Assembly (NCBI GenBank): GCA_014859465.1
Contig: JACUUF010000001.1
Location: 222,719-258,164, forward strand
Direction of reading: 5' to 3'
Length of the DNA: 35,446 bases
DNA from: Methyloprofundus sp.
GTDB lineage: Bacteria; Pseudomonadota; Gammaproteobacteria; Methylococcales; Methylomonadaceae
Below are positions 480 through 7,635 of this stretch, one piece after another. The notes beneath the pieces were generated by a model. That model was not told where the DNA came from. It did no database searches and saw only the letters and a list, made by a program, of their open reading frames with translations. Numbering within the stretch: the first letter of the stretch is position 1; the number at the start of each line of letters is the position of its first letter. The translations under genes and the position numbers were made by a program.

Positions 480-2780
480 CTAAATTTTGCATCCGCCTTC
501 CCCGCAATCCAGATTTTCTTCCTCAATCTCCCCATCACTCGCACCATCACGAGTATTGTGATAATAAAGTGTTTTCAAGCCTAGCTTATAGGCGTAAAGA
601 AGATCTTGAAGCACTTGTTTTATAGGAAGTTTATCGTCCTCAAATTTGGCTGGGTCATAATTTGTATTAGCCGAGATAGCCTGATCAACAAACTTTTGCA
701 TAATACCAACGAGCTCCAAGTAACCCTTATTGTCTGGAATATCCCAAAGTAATTCATAGTTATTGCGAAGCTCTTTAACACCAGGTACAAGTTGTGCAAG
801 CAATCCATCTTTTGACGTTTTAACTGACTTTAGACCACGAGGAGGTTCGATTCCATTTGTTGAATTACTTATCTGAGAGGACGTTTCACAAGGCATTAAG
901 GCTGTTAAAGTCGAATTTCTCAACCCATGCTCTGCAATGTCTCTTCTTAAAGAATCCCAATCTAGCTTTAATTCAGGGCTAACGATTTCATCAAGGAATT
1001 CCTTATACGTGTCAATAGGAAGAAGACCTTGAGCATAAGACGTTTCGTTATACCATTCACAAGGGCCTTGCTCTTTAGCTAAGATGTTCGAAGCCTTGAG
1101 AAGGTAATACTGAATAGCCTCGAGAGTATCATGTGTCAACTGTTTGGCCGAACCATCTGAATACTTCACACCGTTTTTCGCAAGATAATAAGCGAAATTT
1201 GTAATACCGGCACCTAAAGAACGTCTAGCCTTAGCTGGAATTTCTGCAGCAAGGGTAGGGTAGTCCTGATAGTCAAGAAGTGCGTCCAGCGAGCGAACAA
1301 CAAGTTCAGAAAGCCCTTCAAGCTCGTCTAGTGATTCAATCACACCCAAATTGAACGCACTAAGCGTACATAGCGCAATTTCACCATCCTTATCATGTAA
1401 GTCGTTCAAAGGCTTAGTTGGAAGGGCGATCTCAAGACAAAGATTTGACTGGCGAACCGGTGCTTTTTTAGGGTTAAATGCACCATGAGTATTGCAGTGA
1501 TCAACATTTTGAATATAAATTCGGCCAGTCTGAGCTCTTTCTTGAGCGAGCGTCGTAAAGATATCAATGGCTTTAACAACCTTCTTTTTAATCGAGTCAT
1601 CCTGCTCATAAATCAAATATAGACGCTCAAATTCAACTTGATCAGCAAAGAATGCCTCATAAAGACCAGGTACGTCTGAAGGGCTAAATAAAGTGATATT
1701 CTCACCTTTCATCATTCGGGTATACATTAATTTATTGATCTGTACACCATAGTCCAAATGACGAACTCGATTCTCTTCAACGCCTCGATTATTTTTAAGA
1801 ACAAGCAAAGACTCCGCTTCGGCATGCCAAATAGGGTAGTAAACTGTCCCAGCACCCCCACGAACGCCACCTTGTGAGCAAGACTTGATCGCTGTTTGGA
1901 AATGCTTAATAAATGGAATAACACCCGTATGAAAAGCCTCACCACCTCGGATAGGACTTCCCAATGCGCGTAATTGACCAATATTGATCCCAATACCGGC
2001 ACGCTGAGAAATATACTTAACAGAAGCAGAAGCTGTCGCATTAATGGAGTCCAAAGAATCCCCGCATTCAATTAGTACGCAAGAGCTAAATTGTCTAGAA
2101 GGTGTTCTAACCCCTGACATGATTGGAGTAGGCAAAGAAAGCTTAAAAGTAGAAAGCGCATCATAAAAACGCTTGATTAACTCAAGTCTTTTTTCACCTG
2201 AATAACGCTTGCCAAATAAGCACATTGGGATCAATATATTTAAAAACTGAGGTGTTTCTTTTACAGCTGAATAACGACCAGTCGTTCTAGATGCCACGCG
2301 ATCCTGAACAAGATATTTCCCAATAAATTGCTGAGTACCAGAATAAGCAATATTCCAATCTCGATCATGATCTATGAAGCCGTCAATAATGTTGATTTCA
2401 TCATCAGTGTAATCTTCAAGTATTTCAGGATCGTAATAACCTCCCTTTGTTAACTTCTTAACATGATCCAATAGCGTTGGAGGGGTGATTGATCCATACA
2501 CCTGTTTTCTAACATGAAACATAGCTAGTCGTCCGGCATAATATTGATAGTCTGGACGACCAGGGCTAATCATATCAGCCGCAGACTTTATCTGGGCTTC
2601 ATGGATATCGGAAGTTGATATTCCATCAAAAAGCTGAACCCCGGATTTTAACTCAACCTCAGAGACCGAAACATCAAGATCTTTTGCACACCAAGCTAAG
2701 GCCTGGTGAAGCTTTTCTAAATTTATTGGTTCTAAGGTTCCATCACGCTTTTTAACCTTGAATTTCTGCACTTCAGTCAT
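480..2780 (-). CDS. nrdA: Ribonucleoside-diphosphate reductase, class Ia, large subunit
   Basis: Catalytic subunit that reduces ribonucleoside diphosphates to deoxy forms, normally with the radical-generating NrdB subunit. It has 766 residues, against 761 in E. coli, and aligns by eye with a constant offset of 9. An ATP-cone lies at about residues 6-95 (FKVKKRDGTLEPINLEKL). The active-site set is complete: C234, N446, C448, E450 and C471 match E. coli C225, N437, C439, E441 and C462. Y739-Y740 match the radical-transfer pair Y730-Y731. The tail ends C759-GEGG-C764-KI, the shuttle cysteine pair. The ATG at 2780 has AGGATAGAG upstream. No nrdB or glutaredoxin gene is adjacent; the next gene downstream runs the other way. 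It probably has its own promoter and adds dNTP capacity for plasmid replication (inference). Confidence 0.97.
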   Translation of the reverse strand: MTEVQKFKVKKRDGTLEPINLEKLHQALAWCAKDLDVSVSEVELKSGVQLFDGISTSDIHEAQIKSAADMISPGRPDYQYYAGRLAMFHVRKQVYGSITPPTLLDHVKKLTKGGYYDPEILEDYTDDEINIIDGFIDHDRDWNIAYSGTQQFIGKYLVQDRVASRTTGRYSAVKETPQFLNILIPMCLFGKRYSGEKRLELIKRFYDALSTFKLSLPTPIMSGVRTPSRQFSSCVLIECGDSLDSINATASASVKYISQRAGIGINIGQLRALGSPIRGGEAFHTGVIPFIKHFQTAIKSCSQGGVRGGAGTVYYPIWHAEAESLLVLKNNRGVEENRVRHLDYGVQINKLMYTRMMKGENITLFSPSDVPGLYEAFFADQVEFERLYLIYEQDDSIKKKVVKAIDIFTTLAQERAQTGRIYIQNVDHCNTHGAFNPKKAPVRQSNLCLEIALPTKPLNDLHDKDGEIALCTLSAFNLGVIESLDELEGLSELVVRSLDALLDYQDYPTLAAEIPAKARRSLGAGITNFAYYLAKNGVKYSDGSAKQLTHDTLEAIQYYLLKASNILAKEQGPCEWYNETSYAQGLLPIDTYKEFLDEIVSPELKLDWDSLRRDIAEHGLRNSTLTALMPCETSSQISNSTNGIEPPRGLKSVKTSKDGLLAQLVPGVKELRNNYELLWDIPDNKGYLELVGIMQKFVDQAISANTNYDPAKFEDDKLPIKQVLQDLLYAYKLGLKTLYYHNTRDGASDGEIEEENLDCGEGGCKI

Positions 2781-2928: not shown

Positions 2929-5900
2929 TTAGCCGCTTAATAAACTATCAACAAGATCATCTGCCGCTTTAAATACTTTCTTCTTGTCAACTTCATCAAC
3001 TTTAACAGGGGAGGGTTCAGCGTAAGCGCCTACTTTCTCAACCGTCTTACCAATGAAGTTATCAACCACTTCTTCAGATTCCTCTTGATCTCTACCAGCT
3101 ACCTTACGCTCAGCATCAATCATGGTTTCTCGAACGCCGTCCTTTAAGTGAGGATAATCCTCAATTGCCTCAGCACCTTGTTCAGAGCCGTTAATAGCCT
3201 TAAATACCTCTTTACGTTTAAAATCTCGATACTCTTTAGAGTTTAGAATCTCTTTATCGATCTTAAAATCTCCAGCCTCTGGCGCTAAGTTTAAACGCCT
3301 TGCTAAAGACTTCTTCTTCCTCATGGCTTCTAAAGGATTTTCTTTTTCAATATCTAGAGGCTCTACACTGTTAAGTGCGGAATCCTTTTCACCAGATTCT
3401 TCCATATCATCCAGATTATCAATACTTCCAATCGCTAAGCTAAACATGTCTTTGATAGATAAAACCATGCAGGTTGCTAAATCATTTTTTGAAAACTTAG
3501 CACTTGATCCAGAGACCTCGTTAATAGCCTTAAATATCTCTACCTGCTTAGATTTCAGAGGGACGATCGGTTTAACACCCTGTTCTTCGATAATGCTATT
3601 AATATTGCTCGCAATTCTTTTTACATCACCATAGAGTTTAGACAGCTCAGTCTTGTCAGGCGGACTAATGCCTAACCGTTCATTAATCCTAATTTGATGA
3701 TGATCTTCTAAAGGTGGTGCCGCATAAAAAGAACGACCACGAACAATGTCTCCATTAAAGAAGGCGTGAAACTCACCCTCAATTTGCGACTGTAAATCAC
3801 GAATATTTAGTCGAGAAACAGAGGAGGTGCTTATGTTTTGATCTTCTTTATAAGAAAGACCCAGATTCTGATCCATGCTATATCGATCAAGCTTTGAAAT
3901 CGAACCTTCTGCCGCAATATTTTTAAACAATTGCCAAGTATCTTCCGAATCCTCCATTTTCATAGCTAGCTTAACTTTTGTGTTAGCTACAATCTGCTTC
4001 GCCCCTTTTTCATCGCCCCCTTTGATACCACCAAAATCCTGAGAGGCGACAACAGCTGAAATACCCAAGCCACGACCCTGCGTCAGAACCTCGGCATAGC
4101 CTGGTGTTGGAATGGCTGCATATTCATCTGTAATAGAGAAGAAGGGTGTAGGGGAGTCAACCGGCAAGGCACCAAGTACATCGGCAATTTCACCAACTAA
4201 CTTATCACCCAGACCAACAGCACAAGAGTTACGAACCGCTGAAAGGGTAATTTGACCAACAGACTTTAATTGCTCCGGTGCCATCTCAAGGGCTGGCAAG
4301 ATAACCACGAGTATTCGACGATTGCGAATAACATCAAACATGTCAATTTCACCAAAATCATTCAAGTAAATATGACCGTAAGTATCCGTCAAGTTGGCCA
4401 TTGCTAGTGAGAAGTATGAAATTGCATAACCAAATTGCTCTTGGAATGCCTTCTGTTTATCAACCTCTTGCTCAGGTCCCGCCCAGTTAGCCGATCTTAA
4501 GAACCCTTGGACAGCAGCACGAGTTGCTGGAGAAAGCCTGGGGTCCATACCTAGCTCAACATATTTGCTCGCATTCATGTGCTCTCGAACAGTGTTGATA
4601 GACAATTCAATCTCACCGGTATCTCGAAGCTCTACAAGCCCTCTCATTAAAGCGATAATACAAGACTGGGCTTTGTTAGCGAATACGGCGTTTGAACCTT
4701 CAGCAGGTGGGATAAGAGCCACTAAAAGCTGAGAAAGTGCATCAGACGAGCCTTGGGCAAAAGGGTTATTCGTATTCGCAACTTTTCTAGGGTGTCTTGG
4801 GTTCTTATTCTTCTGCTGCATCGAGTAAGACATTGCACCAAAATCATGATCTCGACCAAGGTAGCGACACATATTGTAAATCTGACCAACAAGTTTTGGG
4901 GCACCCTTTGGATCGATGTAGAAGAAGCCAGACCCCATAGCCAAGGCGTTATAGGCGATAGAAACCAGTGTTTCTGTATTGTGTGTCAGAACATAATCCC
5001 CGGCCATAAACAATGAACGAGGATTATCGACCTTAATACATTGAGTGTATTCTTTTCTTTCTAATCGCTTAACGGAAGCAATTTTAATCCCTTTGGATTT
5101 ATCTAAGAAATGCCCCGTTTTATCAAACTGTTTACTACTGAATAAAAGTTCTATATGTTGCATATCAAATAGTACAACGTGATGCCCAGGCGCATTTGAC
5201 TCATATTTGACATGGGCCAGGCCACCTAATGACCAGATTAACCTTTGAAAATCACAAGCCATGCCTTTGCTAAAGAAGTAGGCCTTCCCCTTCTTTTCTT
5301 CTCTAGATATTACACCAGAGCACGAGATTAAACCTCTTGCCAGAGAGATGCGATCAGAAACTGACCATGATTCAAAATTGGTTGAAATCCTTCTTTCTAA
5401 ATAGCCTCGACCATTATTGATCTTTTCAAAAAAGACCTTCTCGCCTGATTCGAGATCATTATCGTCAATAACACCCATTAAGCAATGACCGATGCTTTCA
5501 ATATTTAAACCCATGTCACGCTGAGAGCTGTAAGCTGGTAAGCCAAACGGAAGATGATATTCATCTGCACCGTGCGTAACATTTAATACATTAAACAGCT
5601 CATAGGTATCGACAATTGTTTTTCTATTGTTGTGCACAACCTCCCAAAGATGCGAGCCAGAAGACTTAATCTCTCGACCATCTTCAAGGGATAACAGGTA
5701 AATAACCTCTTTTTCTTGAGGATACACTCCAGTCACTAAAGTGGGATTCCCATCCGGACCAATTAATTGATCGCCTATCTGAATGTCAGCCATAAGCTTA
5801 TGACCAGAAGGGGTTCTTAATGGTGTATCCAAAGTTAAAGCTTTACCTGAGCCGGTTGTACCAAAAATTAAAATATGCGTTAGAACATCACCAGCCTTAA

Positions 5901-6285
5901 GCCAAAGCTCCTTCATCCCCTTTTCAATCATGGTATTGCCAAGATAGAAGATTCCCGCCGCTTTAAAGTATTTAACTCGACCTGGGATAGGGTCGGAATA
6001 ATCCAATCCCTTGATGGTGGCTGGCAGTCTAAAAGGAAGTTTATTCCATTTCTTTGGCCCTGTCCTATGGATATAAATCCCCCAAGCAAACAAAGTCAAG
6101 AGAGGAGAAAGGGTAGGGACGTAATACATTGAGGCCGCTAAAAGACCAATAGCTATAGTTAAAATTAAACGATCTTCTAAAGTATCCAGGATTTGCTGGT
6201 GAAAAGGCCTAACATCACGATAAGTCTTGGATTCATGCATGAGTTGATCATCGTCAACCCCTCTAAATATCCGTCTCTCAGCCAT
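2929..6285 (-). CDS. dotL: DotL/IcmO (TrbC)-type IV coupling ATPase, interrupted by an intein
   Basis: Inner-membrane coupling ATPase that recruits substrate, here presumably relaxase-bound DNA, to an I-type secretion system. The precursor has 1118 residues; removing the intein (149-436) leaves 830, close to DotL (about 780) and TrbC (about 760). Two membrane segments lie at about 40-72. The P-loop is split: FGTTGSGK ends at K148 and resumes with T437, so splicing restores GTTGSGKT. Walker B is FFSITDE (715-721), and ASQDFGG follows at 747-753. The tail after about 830 is long, charged and probably flexible; in Legionella DotL this part binds DotN and IcmSW. ATG 6285 has AGGAG upstream, inside the end of dotM, and only 3 bases separate the genes. 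Unspliced protein has no complete nucleotide site, so activity should need splicing. The family call is strong; the plasmid-transfer role comes from context. Confidence 0.93.
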   Translation of the reverse strand: MAERRIFRGVDDDQLMHESKTYRDVRPFHQQILDTLEDRLILTIAIGLLAASMYYVPTLSPLLTLFAWGIYIHRTGPKKWNKLPFRLPATIKGLDYSDPIPGRVKYFKAAGIFYLGNTMIEKGMKELWLKAGDVLTHILIFGTTGSGKALTLDTPLRTPSGHKLMADIQIGDQLIGPDGNPTLVTGVYPQEKEVIYLLSLEDGREIKSSGSHLWEVVHNNRKTIVDTYELFNVLNVTHGADEYHLPFGLPAYSSQRDMGLNIESIGHCLMGVIDDNDLESGEKVFFEKINNGRGYLERRISTNFESWSVSDRISLARGLISCSGVISREEKKGKAYFFSKGMACDFQRLIWSLGGLAHVKYESNAPGHHVVLFDMQHIELLFSSKQFDKTGHFLDKSKGIKIASVKRLERKEYTQCIKVDNPRSLFMAGDYVLTHNTETLVSIAYNALAMGSGFFYIDPKGAPKLVGQIYNMCRYLGRDHDFGAMSYSMQQKNKNPRHPRKVANTNNPFAQGSSDALSQLLVALIPPAEGSNAVFANKAQSCIIALMRGLVELRDTGEIELSINTVREHMNASKYVELGMDPRLSPATRAAVQGFLRSANWAGPEQEVDKQKAFQEQFGYAISYFSLAMANLTDTYGHIYLNDFGEIDMFDVIRNRRILVVILPALEMAPEQLKSVGQITLSAVRNSCAVGLGDKLVGEIADVLGALPVDSPTPFFSITDEYAAIPTPGYAEVLTQGRGLGISAVVASQDFGGIKGGDEKGAKQIVANTKVKLAMKMEDSEDTWQLFKNIAAEGSISKLDRYSMDQNLGLSYKEDQNISTSSVSRLNIRDLQSQIEGEFHAFFNGDIVRGRSFYAAPPLEDHHQIRINERLGISPPDKTELSKLYGDVKRIASNINSIIEEQGVKPIVPLKSKQVEIFKAINEVSGSSAKFSKNDLATCMVLSIKDMFSLAIGSIDNLDDMEESGEKDSALNSVEPLDIEKENPLEAMRKKKSLARRLNLAPEAGDFKIDKEILNSKEYRDFKRKEVFKAINGSEQGAEAIEDYPHLKDGVRETMIDAERKVAGRDQEESEEVVDNFIGKTVEKVGAYAEPSPVKVDEVDKKKVFKAADDLVDSLLSG
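4978..5841 (-). mobile_element. Intein in the DotL P-loop, class 3 signature, with degenerate LAGLIDADG domain
   Basis: An in-frame protein-splicing element of 288 residues (precursor A149 to N436). Block A starts with Ala instead of Cys or Ser (ALTLDTPLRTPSGHKLMADI). Block B is SSGSHLW, with H212 and W214. Block F is QCIKVDNPRSLFMAGDY, with C416. Block G is YVLTHN, with T434, H435 and N436, and the +1 residue is T437. Known of class 3 inteins: they lack a nucleophile at position 1 and instead use Trp in block B, Cys in block F and Thr in block G; all three are present at the expected places. The middle carries LMGVIDDND (269-277) and ARGLISCSG (316-324), two LAGLIDADG-like motifs whose metal-binding acids are replaced by N and S, so the endonuclease is probably dead. 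The splice sites leave an uninterrupted GTTGSGKT in the host protein. Confidence 0.93.
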
Positions 6286-6288
6286 CTA

Positions 6289-7635
6289 CTAAGCTCTCCT
6301 GTACTTATCAGTCGTTTTTTTCTTTTCTTCTTTTCGAAGCTCTTCTTCTTTTGCTTGAGCGGACTGATTTTTCACTTTGGGATGCTTATACCAGCCTGTA
6401 TCTGATAGGTACCAATCAATATGTTTTAGTGCATTTTCTGCCGTTAAAGAGGAGTCACTAATAGTTTGACCAAAGGTGTTCTCAGTCACATAATGAGACC
6501 AAGCACCTAGAGCCGAAACCCAAGCTGTATTTCCACCGGCTTGATTTAAACAGTCAAACAAAAGTGTTTCAGTTGGCCTTAGCCAGATGAACTTAGATGC
6601 TTCCAACACGCCTTTATCTCTAGCCGCACTAATTAACGCAATCATCCAAGGATAATAAAAACTACCATGCAGATTGTTTATTCGCTTTATATGAGACTGG
6701 TCTTTGTACTTCACGAAAAGATCGAGTGCGCCTTCGGAGTTAATTTTATAGTCCTCAGATAACTGCAAATCCTCCTTCCAGCTACCTTCAATAAAGGAGG
6801 CACTCATTTGGTTAAATAAGTTCAGCGCTTCATTCTTTGACTTTTTGCCACCCGCACTAAATGCCATTAAAGCAGCCACCATTCCCTGATGGTAGTCCGG
6901 CATAGCTAAAAACCCTTCTTCATCAATAGGAACATCCCATCCTCTTGAGTACTGAGCCTTTATCAAGTCAAGACCTTTATCCCAGTCAAGGTGAACGCCT
7001 TCATAATTGGGGTCATCCTGATTGACAATTAAATCACTATGTTCATTATATAAGCCTGTCTTCTTGTCAATAAGCATGTCATACGGAACAACATCCTTGT
7101 TCTCAAAGAGCAAGAGATCATGCTTGGCCGCCCATTGAATAGGTAGTCTTGGAGTCGCCCACCCACCCGTATCGTAAGGCTCGTCAAGAATGCTTTTCTT
7201 TCTATTGGCAATAGGTGCAAGCCAAGGAAACATCTTTGCGTTATGCTTAAGAAGGGTGTCCATATTGTAGTTATGAATTAGCTTTTCAGAGATACCTGTA
7301 TTTATCCAATGCTTATAGCCAAGCCAAAGTGTAATAAAGAAAAAAGGAACCGCATAAAAAAGTGAGAGCGAATGCAGATAAGCATAAGATTCTGAAACTG
7401 TTAGGTACTCAGGATATTCAATTGAACTTATTTCTGCAAAAGTTTGATCATAGAGATAGGGGATAAACTGAAAAGGCCACGCCAGGTAGTAGGCCATTGT
7501 AAACATAGTTATGGCGAAAAATTCCGAATTTGAGCTAATAAAATAAACAAGCCCAATCAAAAGAATGGCTGCTACTACAATATAGAGTACTATATCCATT
7601 CCATTTGAGTCTCCTCCCGGGTATTGCTGTGGCAT
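6289..7635 (-). CDS. dotM: DotM/IcmP (TrbA)-like coupling-complex membrane protein
   Basis: Partner of DotL in the coupling complex of Dot/Icm and IncI transfer systems. It has 448 residues, somewhat longer than Legionella DotM (about 376). Three hydrophobic segments are seen at about 13-33, 39-60 and 85-106, then a soluble domain. Family-like stretches are ALMAFSAGGKKSKNEALNLF, SGVLEASKFIWLRP-like (GVLEASKFIWLRPTETLLFD) and NQAGGNTAWVSALGAWSHY. These match the DotM pattern of a Leu-rich helix with a basic loop, then 'gvL.sa.FiWLkP', then 'N..G..ta....a...H'. Start ATG 7635 has GGAG 9 bases upstream. It lies directly before dotL, the same dotM-dotL neighbourhood as elsewhere. The C-terminal 30 residues are unusually Lys/Glu rich. 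Confidence 0.85.
   Translation of the reverse strand: MPQQYPGGDSNGMDIVLYIVVAAILLIGLVYFISSNSEFFAITMFTMAYYLAWPFQFIPYLYDQTFAEISSIEYPEYLTVSESYAYLHSLSLFYAVPFFFITLWLGYKHWINTGISEKLIHNYNMDTLLKHNAKMFPWLAPIANRKKSILDEPYDTGGWATPRLPIQWAAKHDLLLFENKDVVPYDMLIDKKTGLYNEHSDLIVNQDDPNYEGVHLDWDKGLDLIKAQYSRGWDVPIDEEGFLAMPDYHQGMVAALMAFSAGGKKSKNEALNLFNQMSASFIEGSWKEDLQLSEDYKINSEGALDLFVKYKDQSHIKRINNLHGSFYYPWMIALISAARDKGVLEASKFIWLRPTETLLFDCLNQAGGNTAWVSALGAWSHYVTENTFGQTISDSSLTAENALKHIDWYLSDTGWYKHPKVKNQSAQAKEEELRKEEKKKTTDKYRRA

What the first reader, a model, noticed from the sequence alone, without database searches (positions are those of the whole stretch)
4978..5841. Class 3-type intein inserted at the catalytic P-loop of a DotL/TrbC coupling ATPase
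The splice point lies between the P-loop Lys (K148) and Thr (T437). The intein +1 residue is therefore also the Mg-binding Thr of Walker A, so unspliced DotL cannot bind ATP normally. The intein starts with Ala and carries Trp (W214, two after the block B His), Cys (C416, block F) and Thr (T434, block G), the triad that defines class 3 inteins, which use a branched pathway starting at the block F Cys. Class 3 inteins are best known from DnaB and phage proteins; I do not know of one described in a conjugative coupling protein. Conditional splicing could gate plasmid transfer by redox state (block F Cys) or temperature.
Basis: partly seen in the sequence, partly recalled or inferred. Interest (0 to 1): 0.93.

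Follow-up and report, generated by a model that had tools for sequence, protein, structure and literature searches.

The report
Class 3 intein in conjugation ATPase
A self-splicing protein insert (a class 3 intein) sits in the ATP-binding loop of a plasmid DNA-transfer motor here, but such inserts are already known in this protein family and at this loop, so this is a new example and not a new kind of thing.

Summary
A 1,118-aa DotL/TrbC-type coupling ATPase (2929-6285, minus strand) has a 288-aa intein (4978-5841) between Walker A Lys148 and Thr437. It starts with Ala and carries the class 3 Trp-Cys-Thr triad, block B His and terminal His-Asn. The best PDB sequence matches are class 3 DnaB inteins, and an AlphaFold model has the intein fold. 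Intein-free relatives read GTTGSGK[ST].

The novelty claim fails. The Burkholderia vietnamiensis IcmO intein (IcmO = DotL, recalled nomenclature) is a published class 3 intein that splices in E. coli, at another site. I found class 3 inteins at this very P-loop site in the M. extorquens AM1 TrbC-type protein, IncC-plasmid and Shewanella TraD, and Pseudomonas and Xanthomonas DotL. Lys|Thr of the P-loop is called a classic intein site in print.

What differs here is the endonuclease: its second LAGLIDADG motif has lost both Asp (SCSG for D[TAS]DG), so the intein probably no longer homes but should still splice. Redox or temperature gating has no direct support: the Cys48 partner of the known redox switch is Ile here. 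Verdict: new member of a known kind.

The parts
2929..6285 (-). DotL/TrbC-type type IV coupling ATPase precursor ORF, 1118 aa, stop codon included
   Evidence: NCBIfam TrbC_conju 2.1e-81 (below its curated cut-off) and Pfam TraG-D_C above its gathering score
5842..6285 (-). N-extein, aa 1-148, ending ...GTTGSGK (Walker A up to the Lys)
4978..5841 (-). class 3 intein, aa 149-436, 288 aa (ALTLDT...VLTHN)
5644..5652 (-). block B His212-Leu-Trp214 (B:10 to B:12)
5038..5040 (-). block F Cys416 (F:4), predicted initiating nucleophile
4978..4986 (-). block G Thr434-His435-Asn436 (G:5 to G:7)
4975..4977 (-). Thr437, +1 residue and Walker A Thr
5107..5559 (-). shrunken LAGLIDADG endonuclease remnant (approximate limits, judged from the alignment with the M. 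extorquens and IncC inteins)
5299..5343 (-). second LAGLIDADG motif (block E) reading GLISCSG where 29 of 29 other endonuclease-bearing rows read GLxD[TAS]DG
2929..4977 (-). C-extein, aa 437-1118, TETLV..., with the TraM-recognition (TraG-D_C) region; stop codon included
6289..7635 (-). DotM/IcmP-like protein gene next to DotL
   Evidence: DotM_C 4.7e-24; DotM_IcmP_IVB 8.5e-29, below its curated cut-off

Best explanation
It is a class 3 intein whose homing endonuclease has decayed, inserted between Lys and Thr of the Walker A loop of a DotL/TrbC-type coupling ATPase on a large plasmid-like element. Shown by sequence: anatomy, class signature, empty-site relatives, same-site relatives. Inferred: after translation Cys416 attacks the Lys148-Ala149 bond (branched thioester); the N-extein moves to Thr437; Asn436 cyclises; the exteins join as GTTGSGK-TETL, giving an active 830-aa ATPase. 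Splicing is probably spontaneous and obligatory for transfer. With the endonuclease dead the intein no longer homes and persists because only an exact deletion would leave a working P-loop.
For: phmmer to class 3 Msm DnaB intein 2.1e-15. H64, W66, C268, T286, H287, N288 identical in all 5 aligned coupling-protein inteins and in all 35 rows of a wider set (partly circular, because one search pattern contained HLW and row ends were set by HN). All six splicing residues are kept against the Mex and IncC inteins although only 29% and 32% of the other aligned positions are identical. Model pLDDT 85.6, pTM 0.86; Foldseek 6bs8_A TMt 0.89. Empty sites: L016, DotL of another genus of the same family, GTTGSGKTEF; L008 GTTGSGKSET; IncC TraD with the intein at GTTGSGK|..|TRMFD and without it GTTGSGKTRMFD. 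Endonuclease decay: GLISCSG against GLxD[TAS]DG in 29 of 29 other endonuclease-bearing rows, and no LAGLIDADG Pfam hit in the window intein while two same-site relatives have one. Published splicing of class 3 inteins, P-loop DnaB ones and IcmO among them (PMC5222942 abstract and passages).
Against: No splicing assay exists. The intein is very diverged (tree end branch 3.28 changes per column) and could have lost activity in a way that motif residues do not show. No close relative carrying the same intein was found (1 of 18 genus genomes has this DotL, the window's own), so selection on it could not be measured.
Confidence: 0.87

Rival explanations
1. The intein is a regulatory gate: splicing is held back under oxidation or another stress, so coupling ATPase, and therefore plasmid transfer, is switched on only under permissive conditions.
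For: The P-loop site means the precursor should not bind ATP normally (inference). The class 3 DnaBi1 intein at a P-loop is inhibited by peroxide through a C48-C118 disulfide (PMC6195587, passages). Loss of endonuclease motifs with retention of splicing residues fits keeping it for a purpose, but also fits simple decay.
Against: The DnaBi1 partner Cys48 aligns with Ile47 here, and that column is Ile or Val in the four other coupling-protein inteins. The other intein cysteines (120, 174, 196) lie within the approximate limits of the endonuclease remnant. No data on conditional splicing.
Confidence: 0.12
2. Decayed, non-splicing intein: the coupling protein, and with it conjugation of this element, is dead.
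For: Very long branch; endonuclease motif lost.
Against: The 1,118-aa frame is open; all splicing residues and the +1 Thr are kept; DotM-, DotD-, DotB- and pilus-like genes in the window and DotA- and DotG-like genes elsewhere on the contig are open frames.
Confidence: 0.08
3. Not an intein but a stably folded accessory domain of this DotL subfamily.
For: None found.
Against: Exact fit to intein ends, intein-fold model, inteins of the same kind at GK|[ST] of other P-loop proteins, homologues without it.
Confidence: 0.01

Closest known systems
Burkholderia vietnamiensis G4 IcmO class 3 mini-intein (Tori and Perler 2016, PMC5222942; abstract, outline and passages seen)
   Same: Class 3 intein in a plasmid-borne IcmO (the DotL name in another nomenclature, recalled); splicing and the need for the block F Cys shown in E. 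coli.
   Different: 142 aa, +1 Cys, inserted at ARSLGF|CITFA. By comparison with AAQARSLGFCLVFAGQ in the L003 protein that is far downstream of the P-loop. The paper does not call IcmO a coupling protein; it says its function is not established.
M. extorquens AM1 megaplasmid TrbC-type coupling-protein intein (L003, NC_012811.1)
   Same: Same P-loop site (GK|A...THN|T), Ala1, Trp-Cys-Thr triad, TrbC-type host.
   Different: 365 aa with a LAGLIDADG domain (PF14528 2.6e-08). No feature is annotated there in the held record. I recall an InBase entry for it; not verified.
IncC plasmid TraD intein (L004, L005; DNA-identical over 1,107 bases between L005 and Shewanella profunda L044)
   Same: Same P-loop site, class 3; 47.6% identical to the M. 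extorquens intein.
   Different: TraD (SXT/IncC type) host and full endonuclease; the intein-free junction is far commoner (953 of 961 records).
Pseudomonas and Xanthomonas DotL P-loop mini-inteins (L006, L007, L050-L054)
   Same: Same protein type, same site, same triad (hosts profile-checked for L006, L007 and L052).
   Different: 145-150 aa with no endonuclease and with Pro as first intein residue.
M. smegmatis DnaBi1 (PDB 6bs8; PMC6195587, passages)
   Same: Best PDB sequence match; class 3; P-loop site before the Mg-binding Ser.
   Different: DnaB helicase host, mini-intein, has the redox partner Cys48 that is Ile here.

Membership tests
class 3 intein | no Cys/Ser/Thr at intein position 1 | tested here: met
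   Ala149
class 3 intein | Trp at B:12, Cys at F:4, Thr at G:5 | tested here: met
   W214, C416, T434 aligned with relatives and with the DnaB-1 inteins; definition from PMC5050341 and PMC7664689 passages
class 3 intein | block B His, penultimate His, terminal Asn, +1 Ser/Thr | tested here: met
   H212, H435, N436, T437; +1 rule from PMC5222942 passages
class 3 intein | Hedgehog/intein fold | tested here: met
   AlphaFold model pLDDT 85.6; Foldseek 6bs8_A TMt 0.89
class 3 intein | splicing through a block F Cys branched intermediate | not testable with these tools
   needs an expression assay
homing-competent LAGLIDADG intein | two LAGLIDADG motifs with their catalytic acids | tested here: not met
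   block E is GLISCSG, both Asp lost; whether the block C acid survives depends on the alignment; no LAGLIDADG Pfam hit
DnaBi1-type redox switch | Cys at the position of DnaBi1 Cys48 | tested here: not met
   Ile47 in the phmmer alignment; Cys48 role from PMC6195587 passages
DotL/TrbC coupling protein | NCBIfam NF041447 above its curated cut-off | tested here: inconclusive
   E 2.1e-81 but 274 bits against a cut-off of 800; the M. extorquens, Xanthomonas and Pseudomonas proteins tested also fall below it
DotL/TrbC coupling protein | TraG-D_C region above gathering score and a DotM gene next door | tested here: met
   PF12696 27.4 against 22 bits; DotM_C 86 against 27 bits

The most novel reading that the evidence does not exclude
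The Walker A loop of type IV coupling proteins is a repeatedly used class 3 intein site across DotL/TrbC and TraD lineages. In some lineages (this one, the Pseudomonas/Xanthomonas mini-inteins) the endonuclease is decayed or gone and the splicing domain kept, because splicing acts as a post-translational gate on DNA transfer.
Probability: 0.12. Interest if true: 0.7.

Novelty: new member of a known kind. Interest (0 to 1): 0.33.

Why it matters
If it splices, it adds a diverged class 3 intein at a coupling-protein P-loop whose endonuclease has decayed, between the full-size M. extorquens/IncC forms and the Pseudomonas/Xanthomonas mini-inteins. The set makes it easy to ask whether conjugation is ever gated by protein splicing, since otherwise similar IncC plasmids differ in having or lacking the intein. 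Taken alone it is one more member of a known kind.

Tried and rejected
Close relatives of the whole protein in viral contigs: none confirmed, 0 of 3 pattern matches. Same-genus copies for a selection test: 1 of 18 genomes, the window's own. Same-family search with the intein: 3 of 237 genomes, being the window itself, a terminase-like protein (L013) and a weak hit in a frame with two stops (L014). Same-family search with the C-extein: 43 of 237 genomes pass E 0.001, but only the window and L016 are strong; every other listed hit scores 31 bits or less and was not followed. Order-wide search with the coupling-protein intein alignment: 39 of 311 genomes pass E 0.001. I looked at the frames of L013 and of eight further loci (only the first 330 residues printed, except L087). 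By eye: L013 and L087 are class 3; L090 and L101 look like DnaB inteins starting with Cys; L106, L107 and L108 contain ribonucleotide-reductase-like sequence; L089 begins with Cys in an unnamed protein; L112 ends in DnaB-like sequence. The rest were not examined.

Single origin of the 10 coupling-protein inteins: neither shown nor rejected (AU p 0.231). In that tree L041, L049 and L070 lacked their first two residues (start call, mended by coordinates only). Chance resemblance, domain insertion and class 1 or class 2 intein were rejected (first residue Ala, triad, fold). An early note of mine said both endonuclease acids were lost; one search supports this clearly only for the second motif.

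Literature: ten searches of open-licence PMC papers. intein+IcmO 1 paper; intein+class 3+TrbC 0; intein+class 3 intein 19; intein+P-loop+conjugative+ATPase 3; intein+TraD+plasmid+IncC 0; intein+conjugation+coupling protein+type IV secretion 3; at least 2 of intein/Methylobacterium extorquens/TrbC 25, 15 listed; at least 5 of 6 survey terms 6; intein+TraG+conjugative 7; intein+DotL 0. Apart from the IcmO paper, no listed title or abstract start speaks of an intein in a coupling protein; except for four papers read in passages (PMC5222942, PMC6195587, PMC5050341, PMC7664689) I saw only listings. Tori and Perler 2011 is not held, so a P-loop coupling-protein intein may well be listed there.

Full report
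OBSERVATION. The minus-strand ORF 2929-6285 (1,118 aa, no internal stop) is a coupling ATPase of DotL/TrbC type: NCBIfam TrbC_conju 2.1e-81 (274 bits, below the curated cut-off of 800), Pfam TraG-D_C above its gathering score, and a DotM-like gene directly upstream. Between GTTGSGK (ending at Lys148) and Thr437 lies a 288-aa insert, 4978-5841. The stated residues are correct: Ala149, His212, Trp214, Cys416, Thr434, His435, Asn436, Thr437. Masses are 124.3 kDa precursor, 32.4 kDa insert and about 91.9 kDa spliced.

IT IS A CLASS 3 INTEIN BY SEQUENCE AND FOLD. The best PDB sequence matches are Mycobacterium DnaB-1 inteins, first 6bs8 at 2.1e-15, aligned from the first residue. In an alignment with four other coupling-protein inteins, 25 columns are invariant and include H64, W66, C268, T286, H287 and N288 (intein numbering). 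Against the M. extorquens and IncC inteins only 29% and 32% of the other aligned positions are identical, yet 6 of 6 splicing residues are kept; if they changed like the rest the chance would be about 0.0005-0.001, a crude figure. In a wider set, 37 of the 47 loci were taken; 10 were dropped, five without a detected end and five near-copies. All 37 have H-x-W, the block F Cys and a terminal HN. One search pattern contained HLW and the end was found by HN, so this is not an independent test. The AlphaFold model (intein plus five extein residues on each side, 35-row alignment, pLDDT 85.6, pTM 0.86) matches PI-SceI-type inteins with endonuclease best (1dfa, E 1.5e-12) and, for the splicing domain, the class 3 DnaB inteins (6bs8_A TMt 0.89).

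THE EMPTY SITE. A DotL from another genus of the same family, 50% identical over the first 460 residues of the C-extein (L016, on a 245,923-base contig), reads GTTGSGKTEF without an insert; Nitratidesulfovibrio DotL reads GTTGSGKSET. In IncC TraD, plasmids with the intein read GTTGSGK|...|TRMFD and one without it (L128) reads GTTGSGKTRMFD. This fixes the insertion point exactly.

THE ENDONUCLEASE HAS DECAYED. The M. extorquens and IncC relatives carry a LAGLIDADG domain above Pfam's gathering score; the window intein has no such hit up to E 0.01. The window intein is 77 and 81 residues shorter than these two (288 against 365 and 369). In the second motif all 29 of 29 other rows with an endonuclease read GLxD[TAS]DG, while the window reads GLISCSG, so both Asp are lost (the five further rows are mini-inteins). 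The first motif is altered too, but whether its acid survives depends on how one indel is placed. That both motif acids are needed for cleavage is recalled knowledge of LAGLIDADG enzymes.

NOT THE FIRST OF ITS KIND. PMC5222942 (abstract, outline and passages seen) reports splicing in E. coli of the class 3 Bvi IcmO intein from a B. vietnamiensis plasmid. IcmO is the DotL name in another nomenclature (recalled); the paper says only that its function is not established. Its flanks (ARSLGF|CITFA) put it elsewhere in the protein. At the P-loop site itself I read residue by residue: the M. extorquens AM1 megaplasmid TrbC-type protein, IncC TraD in two plasmids and the DotL of a Xanthomonas and a Pseudomonas savastanoi plasmid, and the junctions in Shewanella profunda TraD, a MAG coupling protein and five Pseudomonas DotL (hosts checked by profile for L044, L046 and L052 only). 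In plasmids, 36 of 72,556 records match the window intein at E 0.01. I assign 15 of these 36 to coupling proteins: 8 by annotation (H45, H67, H69-H72, H75, H76), 2 by reading (H41, H46) and 5 by inference from like matches in like plasmids (H42-H44, H54, H68). In the genome-contig scan, 62 stretches matched a pattern, 15 loci were confirmed, and 7 of the 15 are coupling proteins. The IncC case is rare: at least six records carry the intein or a piece of it, while of 961 records matching 200 bases across the junction 953 match over at least 80% of it, that is, have the uninterrupted site. The intein DNA of the IncC plasmid in L005 and of Shewanella profunda (L044) is identical over 1,107 bases, so that full-size form has moved recently. 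PMC5050341 (passages) calls insertion between the invariant Lys and the nucleophilic Thr a classic P-loop insertion, common in bacteria and archaea.

ORIGIN. On a tree of 41 inteins (312 of 482 columns), the 10 coupling-protein rows need 2 changes of label against 9.1 in shuffles (0 of 500 as low), though near-copies among them favour clustering. The window row has an extreme branch (3.28), and one common origin is neither shown nor rejected (AU p 0.231). In the window's own family one other class 3 intein was seen, at the P-loop of what looks like a phage terminase large subunit (L013, name recalled, not profile-tested), and in its order one in a PhoH-like protein (L087, name recalled); most other hits were not examined. 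GC content of intein (39.5%), exteins (41.9 and 42.4%) and window (38.9%) is similar, so there is no compositional sign of recent arrival.

MECHANISM. From published class 3 chemistry: Cys416 attacks the Lys148-Ala149 bond, the N-extein passes to Thr437, Asn436 cyclises and the exteins join, rebuilding the Walker A loop. Every step in this protein is inferred. Whether splicing is regulated is open. DnaBi1 is inhibited by peroxide through a Cys48-Cys118 disulfide (PMC6195587, passages); the Cys48 position is Ile47 here, and the other intein cysteines lie within the endonuclease remnant. A direct oxidation of Cys416 remains possible; H2O2 inhibited N-cleavage of the class 3 MchDnaB1 intein (PMC7664689 passages).

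CONTEXT. The window is the last 35,446 bases of a 258,164-base contig with RepA- and ParB-like partition genes, DotA/TraY, and DotG-, DotD- and DotB-like genes (these three and RepA below NCBIfam's curated cut-offs), a type IVB pilus-like gene cluster, FtsZ, a gyrase A-like gene and Cas9/Cas1: a large conjugative-plasmid-like element. This DotL is present in 1 of 18 genomes of the genus. No relaxase was identified among the proteins scanned, and only 36 distinct proteins of the window and contig were scanned against a family library. No terminal overlap was found, so circularity is not shown.

VERDICT. Real, correctly read, ordinary in kind: a new, endonuclease-decayed member of the class 3 inteins found in type IV coupling proteins.

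Noticed in passing
L119:6939-11102 (G000 C320 66939-71102): The same plasmid-like contig carries a 1,079-aa Cas9 (cas_Csn1 2.7e-238) followed by Cas1: type II CRISPR genes on a large conjugative-plasmid-like element.
   Followed up: partly
L006, L007, L050-L054: Pseudomonas and Xanthomonas DotL mini-inteins start with Pro (GSGK|PQP...), so the first bond broken would be Lys-Pro, which looks an unusual substrate.
   Followed up: no
L004, L005, L044: IncC TraD carries a P-loop class 3 intein in at least six plasmid records, against 953 of 961 records with the uninterrupted junction; its DNA is identical over 1,107 bases to one in Shewanella profunda.
   Followed up: partly
L009 (NZ_AP028311.1): An E. 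coli IncC plasmid has an IS3-family element annotated between the two pieces that match this TraD intein.
   Followed up: no
L013 (G041, same family as the window): A terminase-like P-loop ATPase (name recalled) holds a class 3 intein, 45% identical to the window's over its first 74 residues.
   Followed up: partly
window 480-2780 and L106-L108: Same-family loci L106-L108 (L107 and L108 same genus) contain ribonucleotide-reductase-like sequence and match the intein alignment, a possible intein; the reductase next to this DotL matches the barrel-domain profile from end to end in one stretch.
   Followed up: no
G000 C320 40998-42227 and 193694-198184: The element also encodes its own FtsZ, a gyrase A-like protein and an adjacent 664-aa ORF that resembles GyrB/ParE by eye.
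   Followed up: no
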